The notes beneath the pieces are model-generated. The model worked only from the letters and a program-made list of their open reading frames with translations, had not been told where the DNA came from and searched no databases. From Chloroflexota bacterium (GTDB lineage Bacteria > Chloroflexota > Limnocylindria > Limnocylindrales > CSP1-4): a DNA stretch of 33,976 bases. A program made the translations under genes and the position numbers. Location of the stretch: the NCBI GenBank assembly GCA_021789435.1, contig JAJYJO010000020.1, positions 1-33,976 on the forward strand, read 5' to 3'. Positions 12,572 to 20,714 of the stretch are shown here, piece after piece. Numbering within the stretch: position 1 is the first letter of the stretch; the number at the start of each line of letters is the position of its first letter.

Positions 12572-13060
12572 TCAGCGGCAGTCGACCGCCAGCGGGCGGA
12601 CGGCCGCGCCGAGGGAGGTCACCAGGCCCGAGAAGGTGATCGTCCCGCCGGGCGGGACCGGCGGGCTCAGCAGGAAGCCCGCGTCCGGGCCGATGCCGGG
12701 CTCGGTCGGGTCGAAGACGCGACAGGTGCTGTCGCCGGCGCTCGTCCCGTCATTGTGGACGGCGATCGCGACCTGGAGCCCGGCCGGCCGGGCCGTGACA
12801 CCGGTGACGCTCCCGGAGAACGGGCCCACCCCGCCGACGGCGAGGTGCGCGACGAGGGCCAGGGCCGCGACCGAGAGTCCGATCGCGAGCAGGATCGTGC
12901 CGTGCGCCTGGGTCGCCGCCGGCTGCGGGAGGCCGAGCGGGTTGCAGCGTTCGCAGAGGGAATCGCCGGCGGCGACGGGCAGCCCGCAGCGAAGACAGGG
13001 GTGAGGTGGCTCCTCCGGGAGGGTGCGAAGAGGCGCGGCTGGAATCGGCGAGGGACGCAT
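12572..13060 (-). CDS. Zinc-ribbon, single-pass membrane protein with extracellular beta domain
   Basis: 162 residues, ATG start. A short Pro-rich lead is followed by a zinc ribbon with C22-x2-C25 and C36-x2-C39 (CLRCG ... CERCNP). One membrane helix follows at about 55-76 (LLAIGLSVAALALVAHLAVG), then an extracytoplasmic part of about 85 residues rich in beta strands (LQVAIAVHNDGTSAGDSTCR, PPGGTITFSGLV) that resembles FxLYD-like domains. A Cys after the helix and another near the C-terminus (VDCR) could form a disulfide. Such proteins are common and uncharacterised in GC-rich bacteria. It ends 74 bp upstream of the phosphatase start on the same strand. Confidence 0.8.
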   Translation of the reverse strand: MRPSPIPAAPLRTLPEEPPHPCLRCGLPVAAGDSLCERCNPLGLPQPAATQAHGTILLAIGLSVAALALVAHLAVGGVGPFSGSVTGVTARPAGLQVAIAVHNDGTSAGDSTCRVFDPTEPGIGPDAGFLLSPPVPPGGTITFSGLVTSLGAAVRPLAVDCR

Positions 13061-13709: not shown

Positions 13710-14945
13710 TCAGCCCTGGAGGATCACCTGGCCCGAGGCCTGGTCGACCTTGATCGGCAGGCTCTGGAGCGGGGCGGGAGCGGGCCCGCCGACGACGCTC
13801 GCCTGGTTGGCCGGATCGAAGGCCGCGCCGTGGCAGGGGCAGAGCAGCAGGCCCGAGCCCGGATCGTAGCCGACGGTGCAGCCGGCGTGGGTGCAGACGG
13901 CGTCGAACGCCACGCACTTTCCGCTGGCCAGGCGGACCAGCACGCCCGGGTCGCCGGTCGTCGGGTCCTGGAAGTCCAAGGCGGTCCGCGGCTGGAGCTG
14001 GCCCAGGTTCGCGATCACGTCGGTGGCGGACCCGCCCCCGGCGCCCGGCGCCGCGCTCGGCGGAGTGCTGGCACCCGGCGCGGCGCTCGGCGCCGTGGCC
14101 CCGGTCAGGCCGCCCCCACTCGGGGACGACCCGGTCTGGCCGGTGACGTCGCCGCCCAGGACGCGCCCGAAGGCCCCCGCGACCAGCGTCACGGCGATCG
14201 CTCCCCCGCCGACGATCGCGGCCTGCAGGAAGGCACGCCGCCCCGGCGAGACCGGGACCGCGTCCTCGAGCTGCTCCACCAGGCCGACGGGCAGGATCCG
14301 CCGCCGCCAGCGCTCGTCGGCCCGCTCGACGGCGCCCGGCAGCCACGGACCGAGCGCCCAGCGGCCCGGCCGGCCGACGAAGGCGATGGTCAGGAAGCCG
14401 GCCGCGTAGGGCAGGTCGGGGCCGTAGTAGTACGGCGCGATGGTCCACGAAGAGGTGAGCCAGAACAGGAGCGAGATCGCGGCGCCGCCGGCGGCGGAGA
14501 GCCGGTAGAGCATCCCGAGCAGAATTCCGATCCCCGCCGCGATCTCGCCGACCGCGACCAGCAGGCCGATCGCGACCGGATGGGGGATGGCCACCGCCTC
14601 GATCAGCGGCGCCAGGGGCGAACCGTGGGTGAAGCCCTGGAGCTGCTGGGCGATCGAGCCCGCGCCGGCGGCGCGAAGGAAGGCCGGTGTGAGGAGCTTG
14701 TCCAGGCCGGCGTAGAGGAAGGTGAAGCCGAGGAAGAAGCGGAGCGGCAGGAGCGCATCCAGGATCCGTCCCTCGCCCGGCATCTCCGCGGGGGTGGACG
14801 GCGCGCCCCGTTCGGGCCTTGACGGTCGGCCGGCCGGGGACCCGCCGGCCGGGGACCCGCCGCTCGGGGACCCGCCGCTCGGCACCCGTGCCGCGGAAGG
14901 CACGGGCCCGCGGGCAGGCTGGTGACGGCTGGGCTTGGAACGCAC
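13710..14945 (-). CDS. DoxX-like membrane domain fused to a Tat-anchored Rieske 2Fe-2S domain
   Basis: 411 residues from GTG 14945, chosen because GGAGGAG (14960-14954) lies 8 nt upstream. The order is a Pro/Gly/Ser-rich cytosolic tail with SGGSPAGG-type repeats (about 1-55), then four membrane helices of DoxX/TQO-small type (LLPLRFFLGFTFLYAGLDKL onward, about 60-200). Next is an internal twin-arginine segment, SPGRRAFLQAAIVGGGAIAV, followed by a Ser/Pro/Gly/Ala linker. Last is the Rieske domain with CTHAGC and CPCHG, the usual Cys/His pairs, about 17 residues apart. The iron-sulfur domain should face outside. The function is probably quinone-linked electron transfer; partners are not visible. 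Divergent from the PPOX gene. Confidence 0.9.
   Translation of the reverse strand: MRSKPSRHQPARGPVPSAARVPSGGSPSGGSPAGGSPAGRPSRPERGAPSTPAEMPGEGRILDALLPLRFFLGFTFLYAGLDKLLTPAFLRAAGAGSIAQQLQGFTHGSPLAPLIEAVAIPHPVAIGLLVAVGEIAAGIGILLGMLYRLSAAGGAAISLLFWLTSSWTIAPYYYGPDLPYAAGFLTIAFVGRPGRWALGPWLPGAVERADERWRRRILPVGLVEQLEDAVPVSPGRRAFLQAAIVGGGAIAVTLVAGAFGRVLGGDVTGQTGSSPSGGGLTGATAPSAAPGASTPPSAAPGAGGGSATDVIANLGQLQPRTALDFQDPTTGDPGVLVRLASGKCVAFDAVCTHAGCTVGYDPGSGLLLCPCHGAAFDPANQASVVGGPAPAPLQSLPIKVDQASGQVILQG
14833..14885. repeat. 15-bp tandem repeat inside the Rieske fusion gene
   Basis: About four imperfect copies of a unit like GGGGACCCGCCGGCC or GGGGACCCGCCGCTC encode the Ser-Pro-Gly-Gly tail repeat of the DoxX-Rieske protein. 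The phase is kept, so the repeat changes tail length without breaking the frame. Confidence 0.7.
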
Positions 14946-15105
14946 GCTTGACTCTCCTCCACTCGGGACGCCGCGCCATTCTGCCGATGCCGCGTTGCGG
15001 CCCGGCCGCGGAGGCGATGAAGCTTTCGCAACGCCGGCCCGGCGGCGCTCGGCGGCGGCCACCAGTGCGGGGCCGTAGCGCCGGCGCGCCGTGGTGGCGG
15101 CGCGC

Positions 15106-15118: not shown

Positions 15119-15571
15119 ATGAGCGATCACCTCCCGCCGCCGGCACCGGGGGCCGCCGCGTCGCTCCCCGCGTCAGTCCGGGCCTTCCTCGACGCTCCGC
15201 GCTTCGCGGTCGTGGCGACCCACGATCCGGACGGCGTCCCGCACCAGGCCGTCGCCTGGTACCGCCTCCTCGAGGACGGCATCGTCCTCAACAGCGCAGC
15301 CGGCCGCCGCTGGCCGGAGAACCTGCGGCGTGACCCGCGGGTGGCCGTCGCGATCGCGGACGGCTACGACTGGGTCGGCCTGCGCGGCATCGTCGAGATG
15401 ATCGAGGACCAGGACCGGGCCCAGGCGGACATCGCGGAGATGGCCCGCCGCTACCACGCCGACGATCCGGAGAAGGCGGAGCGCCTCATCGCCGATCAGT
15501 TCCGGCGCCAGCGGCGGATCAGCTTCCTGCTTCGCCCGGCGAGCATCCATGCCGAGATCGAAGGCGCGTGA
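15119..15571 (+). CDS. PPOX-class F420-binding protein (Rv1155/TIGR03618-like)
   Basis: 150 residues. Split-barrel fold of the pyridoxamine-phosphate-oxidase superfamily. The VRAFLDAPRFAVVATHDPDG opening, PHQAVAWYRLLEDGIVLNSA, GRRWPENLRRDPRVAVAI and GYDWVGLRGIVEMI match the F420-binding branch typified by mycobacterial Rv1155. It probably uses reduced F420 to act on an unknown substrate. The four-helix insertion found in some members is absent; a helical part (IAEMARRYHADDPEKAERLI) precedes the last strand. It sits 103 bp upstream of cofD on the same strand, which supports F420 as the cofactor. The leaderless promoter fixes ATG 15119. Confidence 0.88.
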   Translation: MSDHLPPPAPGAAASLPASVRAFLDAPRFAVVATHDPDGVPHQAVAWYRLLEDGIVLNSAAGRRWPENLRRDPRVAVAIADGYDWVGLRGIVEMIEDQDRAQADIAEMARRYHADDPEKAERLIADQFRRQRRISFLLRPASIHAEIEGA

Positions 15572-15635
15572 GCCCGGGGCGGCAGCCATCTCCCCGCGGC
15601 ATCGCGGCCGTCCGGCAGTCGCTGTCGCCGGGGCG

Positions 15636-15641
15636 TAGCCT
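15636..15641 (+). promoter_or_regulatory. -10-like TAGCCT for cofD
   Basis: TAGCCT lies 33 bp before ATG 15675, leaving a leader of about 27 nt with AGAGGGAGCG as the ribosome binding region. No -35 is obvious. Confidence 0.35.
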
Positions 15642-15674
15642 GTCGCCGTCGGTCTCGAGCCAAGAGAGGGAGCG

Positions 15675-16616
15675 ATGCGCGTCGTCGCCCTGGCCGGAGG
15701 CGTCGGGGGCGCCAAGCTGGCCCACGGGCTCCAGCAGGTGCTCGCGCCGGGCGAGCTGACGGTCGTCGTCAACACGGGCGACGACCTCGAAGTCCACGGC
15801 CTCCCCGTCTGCCCCGACGGCGACACCGTCCTCTACACGCTGGCCGGCGTGGCCAACCCGTCCACCGGCTGGGGGATGGCCGACGAGACCTGGGCCGTCA
15901 TGGGCCAGCTCGGCCGGCTGGGCGAGCCCACCTGGTTCGCCCTCGGCGACCGCGACATCGCCACACATCTCTTCCGCCTGGCGCGTCTCCGGGCGGGACG
16001 CCGCCCGACCGAGGTCAGCCTGGAGCTCTCCCGCGCGCTCGGCGTCGCCGCCCGGATCCTGCCGATGGCCGACCGGCCGGTCCGGACCCAGGTCCGCACG
16101 ACCGACGGCTGGCTCGCCTTCCAGGAGTACTTCGTCCACCGCCACCAGGAACCGGAGGTGCACGAAACCCGGTTCGACGGGATCGACGCCGCGGCCGCGA
16201 CCCCGGAAGTGGCCGATGCCCTTGCAGCCGCGGAGCTGATCGTCCTCTGCCCGTCGAACCCGTTCGTCTCGATCGCGCCGATCCTCGCCGTGCCGGGGAT
16301 CCGGGCCGGCCTCCAGGGAGCGCGGCGCCGTGGCGTCCGGGTCGTGGCCGTCTCCCCGATCGTGGGCGGCAAGGCCCTCAAGGGTCCGGCGGACCGGATG
16401 CTCGCCAGCCTGGGCAAGGACGTCTCGGCCCTCGGCGTCGCCCGCGAGTACCGCGGGCTGGTCGACCTCTTCGTGCTCGACCGGGTGGACGCGGGCCTGC
16501 TGCCGGAGGTCCGAGCGCTCGGCATGCAGGCGGCCGCGACCGACACGATCATGACCGACGACGCGGGCCGCGCCCGCCTGGCCGCCGACCTCCTCCGGCT
16601 GGCGGCGGCGGGCTGA
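15675..16616 (+). CDS. cofD: 2-phospho-L-lactate transferase (CofD/FbiA), coenzyme F420 biosynthesis
   Basis: 313 residues. CofD transfers the phospholactyl (or phosphoenolpyruvyl) group from the GDP/GTP-activated donor made by CofC onto FO, giving F420-0 or dehydro-F420-0. The N-terminus VVALAGGVGGAKLAHGL is the family's Rossmann-like loop. NTGDDLEVHGLPVCPDGDT supplies the metal/phosphate-binding aspartates, GDRDIATH is conserved, and CPSNPFVSIAPIL plus VSPIVGGKALKGPADRM complete the signature. Full length. ATG is preceded by GAGGGAGCG. cofC follows after 25 bp with its own -10-like hexamer. Confidence 0.96.
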   Translation: MRVVALAGGVGGAKLAHGLQQVLAPGELTVVVNTGDDLEVHGLPVCPDGDTVLYTLAGVANPSTGWGMADETWAVMGQLGRLGEPTWFALGDRDIATHLFRLARLRAGRRPTEVSLELSRALGVAARILPMADRPVRTQVRTTDGWLAFQEYFVHRHQEPEVHETRFDGIDAAAATPEVADALAAAELIVLCPSNPFVSIAPILAVPGIRAGLQGARRRGVRVVAVSPIVGGKALKGPADRMLASLGKDVSALGVAREYRGLVDLFVLDRVDAGLLPEVRALGMQAAATDTIMTDDAGRARLAADLLRLAAAG

Positions 16617-16628
16617 GGTCGCGTTGCC

Positions 16629-16634
16629 TACCAT
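16629..16634 (+). promoter_or_regulatory. -10-like TACCAT for cofC
   Basis: TACCAT ends 7 nt before ATG 16642. The same hexamer precedes the OsmC gene. It supports a leaderless internal promoter in the 25-bp cofD-cofC gap and picks ATG 16642 over GTG 16669. Confidence 0.45.
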
Positions 16635-16641
16635 TCGCCCC

Positions 16642-17340
16642 ATGCACGTCCCGGACGAGGCCGCTCCCGTGAGTAACGGACCCGGCGCGGTCGCCGCCCG
16701 TCCGGGCGGCCCGGCCGGTGTCGCGGTCGTCGTCCCCGTCCGCGCCCTCGAGGGCGCCAAGTCCCGCCTGGGCGCGCAGCTCGACGCGGAGGAGCGCCAG
16801 GCCCTCGTGCTGGCCCTCTTCGAGCGGGTCCTGGAGGCGGCCCGCGGCACGGCCGGCGTGGGGCGGGTGATCGTGGTGAGCCCGGACGGGGAGGTCCTGC
16901 GGCGGGCGGCCCGCGCCGGCGCGCTGCCCCTGCGCCAGCAGTCCGGAGACCTTAACGCGGGGCTGGTCCAGGCGGCGGACCTGGCCGCGGCGATGGGGGT
17001 CGCCGCCGTCCTGGTGCTGCCCGCCGACCTGCCGGCGATCAACCCTGCGGAGGTCCGCCGGCTCGTCGAGTCGGCCTCGGCCTCCGCCCGCCCGGGCCGC
17101 CCCCTCGTCGCATTGGTCCCGGATCGCCACGGGGGCGGCACGAACGCGCTCCTGGTTTCGCCGCCGCGGGCGATCCCGTTCCGCTTCGGCGAGGGCAGCC
17201 GCAGCCTGCACGCGACCGAGGCGCGGGCCGCCGGCGCGGTCTACCTCGAGCTCGACGGGCCGCTCAGCCTGGACATCGACACACCGGACGACCTCCTGCT
17301 CGCCGACCTGGCCGGCCTCGACCACGGAGATGGGCGGTGA
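16642..17340 (+). CDS. cofC: 2-phospholactate/phosphoenolpyruvate guanylyltransferase (CofC/FbiD)
   Basis: 232 residues from ATG 16642. CofC activates 2-phospholactate, phosphoenolpyruvate or 3-phosphoglycerate with GTP; the sequence does not settle which. The nucleotidyltransferase fold shows VAVVVPVRALEGAKSRLG at the N-terminus (GTP/phosphate loop), LVLPADLPAINPAEV (metal-binding region), DRHGGGTNALLVSPP and a C-terminal LDIDTPDDL. The first 25 residues before the fold are not conserved, so GTG 16669 is an alternative start. Its stop overlaps the cofE GTG (GTGA), which indicates translational coupling. Confidence 0.95.
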   Translation: MHVPDEAAPVSNGPGAVAARPGGPAGVAVVVPVRALEGAKSRLGAQLDAEERQALVLALFERVLEAARGTAGVGRVIVVSPDGEVLRRAARAGALPLRQQSGDLNAGLVQAADLAAAMGVAAVLVLPADLPAINPAEVRRLVESASASARPGRPLVALVPDRHGGGTNALLVSPPRAIPFRFGEGSRSLHATEARAAGAVYLELDGPLSLDIDTPDDLLLADLAGLDHGDGR

Positions 17341-18125
17341 GCCCGACCGACGACCCGGAGGGCGGCCGGCTGGAGGTGATCGCCCTCCCGGGTATCCCCG
17401 AGGTCGAGCGCGGCGCCGACCTGGGCGCGCTCCTCGCCACCGCTCTCCGCGAGACTCCGGGCGCCTGGCCGCCCGGCGATGACGCGGTGCTGGTCGTGAC
17501 CCAGAAGGTCGTCTCCAAGGCGGAGGGCGCCGTCGTCGACCTCGAGACCGTCACCCCCCGGGCCGACGCCCTTGCCTGGGCGCGGGCCTGGGACCGGGAT
17601 GCGCGGCAGATCGAGGTGGTCCTCCGCGAAGCCCGCCGGATCGTGCGGATGGAGCACGGCGTCCTCATCACGGAGACGCCGCACGGTTTCGTCTGCGCCA
17701 ACGGCGGCGTCGACGCCTCGAACGTCGGGCCCGGCAGCGGGCACCTGGTGACCCTCCTGCCGGTCGACCCCGACCGCTCGGCGGCGGGTATCCGGGCCGC
17801 GATCCGCGAGCGGACCGGCCTGGACCTGCCGGTGATCGTCTCGGACAGCTTCGGCCGGCCGTGGCGGCTGGGCATCACCGACGTCGCCATCGGCCTGAGC
17901 GGCCTCGCCCCGCTCCAGGACCTTCGTGGGGCGCCCGACGCGGACGGCCGGGTGATGCGCACCACGGTCCGGGCCGTCGCCGACCAGATCGCCTCGGCTG
18001 CCGAGCTGGCGATGGGCAAGACGAGCGGCCGGCCGGCCGCCCTGGTCCGCGGGGCGGGCGCGCGTCGGGCAGAGGCCGGCATCCGCGACGCCCTCATGCC
18101 GGCCGAGCAGGACCTCTTCCGTTGA
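17337..18125 (+). CDS. cofE: Coenzyme F420-0:L-glutamate ligase (CofE), stand-alone form
   Basis: 262 residues, GTG start overlapping cofC by 4 bp. CofE adds glutamate residues to F420-0 with GTP. Motifs: VTQKVVSKAEGAVVDL, EARRIVRMEHGVLITET, the GFVCANGGVDASNVGPGSG loop, and SDSFGRPWRLGITDVAIGLS with metal-binding Asp residues. There is no C-terminal nitroreductase/FMN domain, so unlike actinobacterial FbiB it cannot itself reduce dehydro-F420. Either the lactate route is used or a separate reductase exists elsewhere. Its TGA shares one base with the ATG of the next gene (TGATG). The FO synthase genes (cofG/cofH or fbiC) are not in the window. Confidence 0.96.
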   Translation: MSPTDDPEGGRLEVIALPGIPEVERGADLGALLATALRETPGAWPPGDDAVLVVTQKVVSKAEGAVVDLETVTPRADALAWARAWDRDARQIEVVLREARRIVRMEHGVLITETPHGFVCANGGVDASNVGPGSGHLVTLLPVDPDRSAAGIRAAIRERTGLDLPVIVSDSFGRPWRLGITDVAIGLSGLAPLQDLRGAPDADGRVMRTTVRAVADQIASAAELAMGKTSGRPAALVRGAGARRAEAGIRDALMPAEQDLFR

Positions 18126-19763: not shown

Positions 19764-20714
19764 GTGCGACTCGGCCTGCAGATCCCGTCCTTCACCTGGC
19801 CCGGCGGCGACGCCGCGATCGGCCCCACCCTGGCGCGGATCGCGCGGACCGCCGACGACGTCGGCTTCGACTCGATCTGGGTCATGGACCATTTCTTCCA
19901 GATCCGGAGCGTCGGACGGGCCGAGGAGCCGATGCTGGAGGGCTGGACCACGCTCGGCTTCCTGGCGGCGCAGACGCGCCGAGCGACCCTGGGCCTGATG
20001 GTCGGGGGCGTTCACTATCGTGCTGCCGGCCTCTGGATCAAGGCGGCCACCACCCTCGACGTCCTGTCCGGCGGTCGGGCCTGGCTGGGCATCGGCGCGG
20101 CCTGGAACCAGGATGAGTCGGAGGGCCTCGGGTTCGGCTTCCCACCGCTCGGCGAGCGCTTCGAGATGCTCGAGGACGTCCTGCGCATGGCCCACGGCAT
20201 GTGGACCGGCGAGGGCGGTAGCGGCGGGTCCTTCGAGGGCCACCGGACCACAGCGACGCGCCTGCTCAATGCACCCCAGGCGCTCAGACGGCCACATCCG
20301 CCGATCATGGTGGGCGGCGGCGGTGAGCAGCGGACGCTCCGCCTGGTCGCCCGCTACGCAGACGCCACGAACGTCTTCGGCGGCCCGGACCAGATCGCCC
20401 ACAAGTACGCCGTCCTGCGCGCCCACTGCCAGGCGGTCGGCCGCCCGTTCGCCGAGATCGAGCGCTCCACCCTGCAGACGGTCGACCTCGAGGACGGCCG
20501 GGGCGATCCCGCCGCGGTGCCGATGGGCCACGGCCCGAGCCGGCCCCCCGAGACTCCGGACCAGGTCGTGGAGCGCTTCGGGCGCCTGGCGGAGGCCGGC
20601 GCCCAGACCGTGATCTTCAACGTCCCGCGCGTGGCCGACGCCGACCGGCTGGAGCGCCTGGGCCGCGACGTCCTCCCCCAGCTGAAGGCGCTCGGGCCGC
20701 CCGATCTCGCCTGA
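19764..20714 (+). CDS. LLM-class F420-dependent oxidoreductase
   Basis: 316 residues, GTG start. TIM-barrel luciferase-like family in the F420-dependent subgroup (TIGR03560-like). Landmarks: LGLQIPSFTWPGGD at the first strand, DDVGFDSIWVMDHFFQI, TTLGFLAAQTRRATLGLMVG, the GRAWLGIGAAWNQDESEGLG loop, PPIMVGGGGEQRTLRLVARY (phosphate/F420-binding strands) and NVFGGPDQIAHK. It would transfer hydride between F420H2 and an unknown substrate. It sits 121 bp downstream of the cof/GT39 block with its own likely promoter. Full length, cytosolic. Confidence 0.93.
   Translation: MRLGLQIPSFTWPGGDAAIGPTLARIARTADDVGFDSIWVMDHFFQIRSVGRAEEPMLEGWTTLGFLAAQTRRATLGLMVGGVHYRAAGLWIKAATTLDVLSGGRAWLGIGAAWNQDESEGLGFGFPPLGERFEMLEDVLRMAHGMWTGEGGSGGSFEGHRTTATRLLNAPQALRRPHPPIMVGGGGEQRTLRLVARYADATNVFGGPDQIAHKYAVLRAHCQAVGRPFAEIERSTLQTVDLEDGRGDPAAVPMGHGPSRPPETPDQVVERFGRLAEAGAQTVIFNVPRVADADRLERLGRDVLPQLKALGPPDLA

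What the first reader, a model, noticed from the sequence alone, without database searches (positions are those of the whole stretch)
13710..14945. DoxX membrane domain, internal Tat signal and Rieske domain in one protein
The four-helix DoxX-like part is followed by SPGRRAFLQAA plus a hydrophobic stretch, then a Rieske domain with CTHAGC and CPCHG. Actinobacterial QcrA proteins combine Sec-inserted helices with a final Tat-inserted helix before the Rieske domain. Here the same solution seems to have arisen on a DoxX base. This would make a self-contained quinone-linked oxidoreductase, which I infer and do not see.
Basis: partly seen in the sequence, partly recalled or inferred. Interest (0 to 1): 0.6.

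Follow-up and report, generated by a model that had tools for sequence, protein, structure and literature searches.

The report
DoxX–Rieske membrane protein, internal Tat signal
One bacterial gene fuses a four-helix membrane unit of poorly understood function (DoxX) to an export signal, a fifth helix and an iron-sulfur electron-carrier domain; the same fusion, export signal included, recurs across one bacterial phylum, which predicts a membrane protein built by two different export machines, while its electron-transfer role is still untested.

Summary
Confirmed. The minus-strand gene at 13710-14945 encodes 411 aa: DoxD/DoxX bundle (64-193), twin arginine (R236-R237), fifth helix, and a bc-type Rieske domain with intact ligands. 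It is not a chance or assembly fusion. The host is a Candidatus Limnocylindrales (Chloroflexota) bacterium. I collected 82 distinct homologs with the same domain order, in ten Chloroflexota families plus two Streptomycetaceae. RR is kept in 79 of 82 and is the only strongly conserved feature of an otherwise unalignable cytosolic connector. Where the halves occur apart, RR stays with Rieske (as a Tat-lipoprotein-like signal) and is absent from DoxX. Charge distribution, TatC in the genome, and a separate QcrA-like Rieske near its own cytochrome b support the QcrA analogy. Dual Sec/Tat Rieske proteins are known; PMC5449189 mentions one five-helix Kitasatospora case, probably this architecture, not called DoxX. 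So: a new variant of a known kind. The quinol-oxidising role is unproven: no thiosulfate or cytochrome gene recurs nearby; recurrent neighbours are an OmpR-type two-component system and DUF2231. A side result may be more surprising: the same RR–helix–Rieske tail sits on pseudokinase-like domains in large-genome Chloroflexota.

The parts
14954..14960 (-). Shine-Dalgarno-like GGAGGAG, 8 bases before the GTG start
   Evidence: read directly
13710..14945 (-). whole gene, 411 aa DoxX–RR–helix–Rieske protein, stop codon included
   Evidence: homologs
14757..14945 (-). N-terminal cytosolic tail, residues 1-63, low complexity, basic
   Evidence: sequence; low pLDDT
14367..14756 (-). DoxD/DoxX four-helix bundle, residues 64-193
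   Evidence: Pfam PF04173 and PF07681; helices
14406..14450 (-). conserved outer loop SWTIAPYYYGPDLPY (residues 166-180), candidate substrate or docking site
   Evidence: W167 81/82, P171 81/82, G175 79/82, D177 82/82; the functional role is inferred
14235..14240 (-). twin arginine R236-R237 (in SPGRRAFLQAA, residues 233-243)
   Evidence: 79/82 and 80/82 conserved
14166..14234 (-). fifth helix, residues 238-260, presumed Tat-inserted anchor
14019..14165 (-). flexible Ser/Pro/Ala/Gly linker, residues 261-309
   Evidence: sequence; pLDDT below 50 over 263-305
13713..14018 (-). Rieske [2Fe-2S] domain, residues 310-411
   Evidence: Pfam PF00355, PDB relatives, fold
13827..13895 (-). cluster-binding loops C351-T-H353-A-G-C356 and C369-P-C371-H372-G
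   Evidence: ligands 82/82; disulfide pair 76/82, lost together in the other 6

Best explanation
A five-helix membrane redox protein assembled by two translocases. SHOWN from sequence: DoxX bundle, conserved RR, fifth helix and bc-type Rieske domain in one chain, conserved across Chloroflexota. INFERRED with good support: helices 1-4 enter co-translationally by Sec (N-terminus in, end of helix 4 in); the Rieske domain folds and receives its [2Fe-2S] cluster in the cytosol; Tat then recognises R236-R237 and moves the domain out, leaving helix 5 as its anchor on a flexible linker. INFERRED with weak support: the outer conserved loop of DoxX (SWx3PYYYGxD), with K83 and E134 of the bundle, forms a site for quinol or another small reductant; the tethered Rieske head docks there, takes one electron and hands it to an acceptor outside, without a cytochrome b and so without a Q cycle. 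The Ser and Tyr that raise the potential in mitochondrial bc1 (after CPCHG) are mostly Ala and Phe here, so a moderate potential suited to menaquinol or a low-potential partner is expected. My odds: architecture 0.95, Tat-dependent outside location 0.85, quinol as electron donor 0.4.
For: Domains. Fusion conserved in relatives at 38-56% identity, RR invariant in 29 of 29; phylum-wide; 82 distinct proteins, RR in 79. Some lineages carry textbook Tat motifs (TRRDFLKG in L144 and L145). Charges fit the positive-inside rule: connector net +3.6, outer loops net -0.7 each. Helix 5 is only moderately hydrophobic and often followed by R/K, as described for Tat-dependent helices in PMC5449189. Split cases: DoxX alone (L210, L211) lacks RR, helix 5 and Rieske; Rieske alone (L213; Streptomyces L087, L098, L109) keeps RR and has a lipobox. 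TatC is in the genome. The genome has a separate QcrA-like Rieske and another twin-arginine Rieske, each within 0.5-1.3 kb of a cytochrome b gene, so this is not the bc-complex subunit.
Against: No experiment. Three of 82 lack RR (L138 has RK; L195 and L198 lack an adjacent pair there). Rough Hessa-type scores do not make helix 5 clearly less hydrophobic than helices 1-4 (median 1.6 against 1.2-4.3), and that scale was entered from memory. No cytochrome, cupredoxin or thiosulfate gene recurs as neighbour, so donor and acceptor are unknown. The DoxX half has no solved relative among the hits shown, so a quinone site cannot be tested here.
Confidence: 0.55

Rival explanations
1. It is a redox sensor or oxidative-stress device rather than a respiratory enzyme: the outer Rieske cluster reports or buffers the redox state and DoxX couples this to the membrane or to partner proteins, as in the DoxX–SseA–SodA complex of Mycobacterium tuberculosis.
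For: An OmpR-type response regulator and a histidine kinase lie directly beside the gene in several lineages (7 loci with the same divergent arrangement, others downstream). The same RR–helix–Rieske tail is fused to kinase-like domains in family f21. A DoxX protein of M. tuberculosis belongs to an oxidoreductase complex tied to oxidative stress (PMC6930017).
Against: A two-component system next door may only regulate expression, and such genes are common. The DoxX core keeps many conserved polar residues, which suggests chemistry and not just anchoring. No neighbour is shared by most loci.
Confidence: 0.3
2. It is a thiosulfate:quinone oxidoreductase (TQO)-like enzyme in which a Rieske domain replaces the DoxA subunit: thiosulfate is oxidised outside and electrons enter the quinone pool.
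For: Pfam DoxD ('TQO small subunit DoxD') matches the membrane half.
Against: The NCBIfam TQO DoxD equivalog scores 26.1 bits against a cut-off of 300. No thiosulfate or sulfur gene recurs nearby. A high-potential one-electron Rieske centre is an unlikely donor to quinone.
Confidence: 0.07
3. The RR pair is only a positive-inside topology signal; Sec inserts all five helices and the Rieske cluster is assembled outside.
For: The connector is rich in Arg anyway; by the rough scale helix 5 is not clearly less hydrophobic than other helices; 3 of 82 lack RR.
Against: A topology signal would not need the exact adjacent pair at one fixed place (79/82, next best column 76%), nor canonical TRRDFLKG motifs, nor retention of RR when Rieske is on its own with a lipobox. 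Fe-S domains are normally matured in the cytosol.
Confidence: 0.08

Closest known systems
Actinobacterial QcrA (bc1-complex Rieske subunit, three helices, dual Sec/Tat; PMC5449189)
   Same: Even number of Sec helices in front, RR just before one final moderately hydrophobic helix, Rieske domain outside.
   Different: Four DoxX helices instead of two; no cytochrome b or c beside the gene; NCBIfam QcrA score 56.7 against a cut-off of 275. The same genome has its own QcrA-like protein (L008, FTRRRFLLGSL) on the same contig as a cytochrome b gene.
KSE_30950 of Kitasatospora setae (five-TMD Rieske with RR before TMD5, one sentence in PMC5449189)
   Same: Five helices, RR before the fifth, Rieske at the end; found in a close relative of the genera in which I see the fusion (L082 Peterkaempfera, L091 Streptacidiphilus).
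   Different: The paper does not name DoxX nor follow it up; I could not fetch the sequence, so identity of architecture is likely but untested.
DoxD/DoxX family (TQO of Acidianus; DoxX of the SseA–SodA complex of M. tuberculosis)
   Same: Membrane half matches PF04173 and PF07681 above cut-off.
   Different: No DoxA, SseA or SodA gene recurs beside it; TQO-specific model far below cut-off; carries an extra helix and a Rieske domain.
Tat lipoprotein-like Rieske proteins (e.g. L213 in the same family; Streptomyces L087)
   Same: RR signal plus related Rieske domain; L213 matches the family model at E 3.7e-41.
   Different: Lipid-anchored through a lipobox Cys rather than fused to DoxX through helix 5.

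Membership tests
Rieske [2Fe-2S] proteins, bc type | CxH...CxxH ligands and Rieske fold | tested here: met
   PF00355 above cut-off; ligands 82/82; Foldseek
Rieske [2Fe-2S] proteins, bc type | disulfide between the two loops (CTHxGC, CPCHG) | tested here: met
   C356 and C371 present in the window protein and in 76/82; absent together in one clade of 6
QcrA / bc1-complex Rieske subunit | score above the family cut-off and cytochrome b partner gene | tested here: not met
   56.7 against 275 bits; cytochrome b genes lie beside other Rieske genes
Dual Sec/Tat-targeted polytopic proteins | N-in, even number of helices, then RR motif, then exactly one helix and an outside cofactor domain | tested here: met
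   sequence-level only:
Dual Sec/Tat-targeted polytopic proteins | low hydrophobicity of the last helix plus C-terminal positive charges | tested here: inconclusive
   helix 5 moderate, not clearly below helices 1-4; mean 0.96 K/R in the flank
Dual Sec/Tat-targeted polytopic proteins | export of a reporter that depends on Tat and on RR | not testable with these tools
   needs reporter fusions in tat-plus and tat-minus cells
DoxX/DoxD superfamily | profile match above curated cut-off | tested here: met
   PF04173 51.7 bits (cut-off 22.7), PF07681 35.8 (23.6)
Thiosulfate:quinone oxidoreductase | TQO DoxD equivalog score; DoxA partner | tested here: not met
   26.1 against 300 bits; no sulfur-enzyme gene among recurrent neighbours

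The most novel reading that the evidence does not exclude
A family of single-chain, cytochrome-b-free quinol oxidoreductases of the Rieske type: DoxX supplies the quinol site and a Tat-inserted, tethered Rieske head carries the electrons outside. RR–helix–Rieske would be a mobile redox head attached in evolution to DoxX and, in large-genome Chloroflexota, to pseudokinases that would read the redox state outside the cell.
Probability: 0.3. Interest if true: 0.8.

Novelty: new variant of a known kind. Interest (0 to 1): 0.55.

Why it matters
It adds a widespread family to the few proteins assembled jointly by Sec and Tat, with a membrane part unrelated to QcrA; this supports the idea that an RR-plus-helix-plus-cofactor tail can be put behind any part whose end faces the cytosol. 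It also gives DoxX, a common family of unsettled function, a physical electron-carrier partner, which makes the question 'does DoxX handle quinol?' directly testable with one purified protein and EPR.

Tried and rejected
Cytochrome, cupredoxin or sulfur genes as conserved neighbours: none found among recurrent clusters; many first clusters were shadow reading frames in GC-rich DNA and were discarded. F420 genes (CofD, CofC, CofE, a PNPOx-type protein, luciferase-like) next to the gene: real but shared only within the order, so probably inherited gene order. Streptomyces as general proof of a DoxX–Rieske pair: only 3 of 37 lone-DoxX loci have a divergent Rieske gene, weak. A Rieske-domain tree to date the fusions: too few columns and long branches; it cannot settle one origin or several, nor whether the kinase tails came from DoxX fusions. 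Plasmid records: only unfused Rieske matches, none covering 80% of the query. Papers: none in the held library was found to name a DoxX–Rieske fusion.

Full report
OBSERVATION. The reading frame is exact: minus strand, GTG at 14945, stop 13712-13710, 411 residues, with GGAGGAG eight bases before the start. Pfam gives DoxD (E 1.3e-13) and DoxX (1.2e-8) in the first half and Rieske (4.1e-11) at the end. SPGRRAFLQAA is at 233-243, before a hydrophobic helix. AlphaFold with 29 family members gives helices for the DoxX part, a helix at 234-263, a disordered linker at 263-305 and a Rieske fold with pLDDT mostly 92-98 (mean over the protein 75.9, pTM 0.54). The listed Foldseek hits in the PDB are Rieske proteins.

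HOST. The window is contig 49 of a 2.85-Mb, 156-contig genome. The other families carry no names; 'f21', with genomes up to 13.7 Mb, is probably Ktedonobacteria, which I did not verify.

CONSERVATION. Among 100 relatives the match covers the DoxX half and beyond in about 24 other members of the same family and 7 of the sister family. In the first alignment of 29, R236, R237, C351, H353, C369 and H372 are invariant at 38-56% identity to the window protein. Across 400 Chloroflexota genomes about 47 have an essentially full-length match at E below 1e-70, in families f1, f2, f13, f18, f21, f22, f28, f35, f38 and f80. Outside the phylum the scan showed the fusion in Streptacidiphilus and Peterkaempfera, and lone DoxX in Streptomyces; only the best 80 of 506 candidates were kept, so other phyla are not excluded.

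THE TWIN ARGININE. Among 82 distinct fused proteins, R236 is conserved in 79 and R237 in 80. In the 48 columns from 194 to 241 no other residue exceeds 76%, and most of the connector does not align. An automatic window first scored 78 of 82; L199 was misplaced and does have TTRRDFIWG. Several lineages have canonical TRRDFLKG. When the halves occur apart, RR goes with Rieske: L213, in the window's own family, is a lone Rieske with PHRRAVIKAG and a lipobox-like AAAC; three Streptomyces-type Rieske genes beside DoxX have TTRRRTVLAAG...LSGCG; the lone DoxX proteins L210 and L211 lack RR before a fifth helix, the fifth helix itself and Rieske. This is the strongest evidence that RR is an export signal and not a topology charge.

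TOPOLOGY. Net charge is +1.0 for the loop between helices 2 and 3 and +3.6 for the connector, against -0.7 for each outer loop, which gives N-terminus in, RR in, Rieske out. The genome has TatC. The hydrophobicity criterion of PMC5449189 is inconclusive here.

WHAT IT IS NOT. It is not the bc-complex Rieske subunit: the genome has a QcrA-like Rieske protein (L008; FTRRRFLLGSL) about 0.5 kb from a cytochrome b gene on contig 69, and another twin-arginine Rieske (L009) about 1 kb from a cytochrome b gene on contig 71. It is not a TQO by NCBIfam (26 against 300 bits).

NEIGHBOURHOODS. Gene calling on 82 loci showed no recurrent cytochrome, cupredoxin or sulfur gene among the clusters identified. 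Recurrent are an OmpR-type response regulator with a histidine kinase, divergent and upstream in seven loci and downstream in two small-genome relatives, and a DUF2231 membrane protein directly downstream in nine. In the window the neighbours are a PNPOx-type protein, CofD, CofC and CofE of F420 synthesis, and an inositol monophosphatase. The gene therefore looks genetically self-contained, but its electron donor and acceptor are unknown.

MECHANISM. Shown: domains, order, conserved residues. Inferred: dual Sec/Tat assembly (about 0.85) and electron transfer between a site in the outer DoxX loop and the tethered Rieske head (about 0.4). The positions that hold the potential-raising Ser and Tyr in mitochondrial bc1 are A374 (Ala in 73 of 82) and F376 (Phe in 69 of 82); from general knowledge of bc1 mutants this predicts a lowered potential. 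In the Aquidulcis-type clade both disulfide cysteines are lost together while all ligands stay (6 of 82).

PRIOR KNOWLEDGE. Dual Sec/Tat Rieske proteins are established (PMC5449189). That paper names in one sentence a Kitasatospora five-TMD Rieske, KSE_30950, with RR before TMD5; given the fusions in related genera this is probably the same architecture, but I could not fetch it. No held paper was found to name a DoxX–Rieske fusion. A later survey of Tat tail anchors mentions neither DoxX nor Chloroflexota. I therefore rate it a new variant of a known kind.

SIDE FINDING. In family f21 the RR–helix–Rieske part lies at the end of 500-784-residue proteins whose first half is a Pfam protein kinase domain (5 of 5 full-length proteins tested). 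All 18 Rieske tails found there keep RR before the helix. The DFG motif reads EFG or GFG in all 17 where it could be seen, and HRD reads HRN or HGM in the six where it was matched, which suggests pseudokinases with an outside Rieske head.

Noticed in passing
L151-L168 (family f21), e.g. L153:2685-4292 minus, L154, L166:1664-3697 plus: Protein-kinase-like domain (DFG replaced by EFG or GFG, HRD by HRN/HGM where matched) followed by RR, one helix and a Rieske domain: a possible redox-reading pseudokinase receptor inserted by Tat. Most have lost both disulfide cysteines (CTHxGV..CPAH).
   Followed up: partly
L036-L040, L088 (small-genome sister family, Candidatus Aquidulcis type): The DoxX–Rieske protein has lost both disulfide cysteines together (CTHQGT..CPNHG) while keeping all four cluster ligands.
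   Followed up: partly
L177, L178, L179, L186, L190, L191, L192, L199, L201: A DUF2231 membrane protein lies directly downstream on the same strand as DoxX–Rieske; in the window's genome three other Rieske proteins (L001-L003) carry an N-terminal membrane part that looks like DUF2231 by eye (not tested).
   Followed up: partly
window 15119-18125, plus strand: PNPOx-type protein, CofD, CofC and CofE: an F420 synthesis cluster divergent from the DoxX–Rieske gene; luciferase-like protein at 19764-20714.
   Followed up: partly
window 12572-13060, minus strand: 162-residue protein without a Pfam match, with an N-terminal zinc-ribbon-like CxxC pair (CLRCGLP..CERCNP), one helix and an outer part, downstream of the finding.
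   Followed up: no
L087, L098, L109 (Streptomyces and a relative): Lone DoxX gene head-to-head with a Tat-lipoprotein-like Rieske gene: the unfused version of the same pair.
   Followed up: partly
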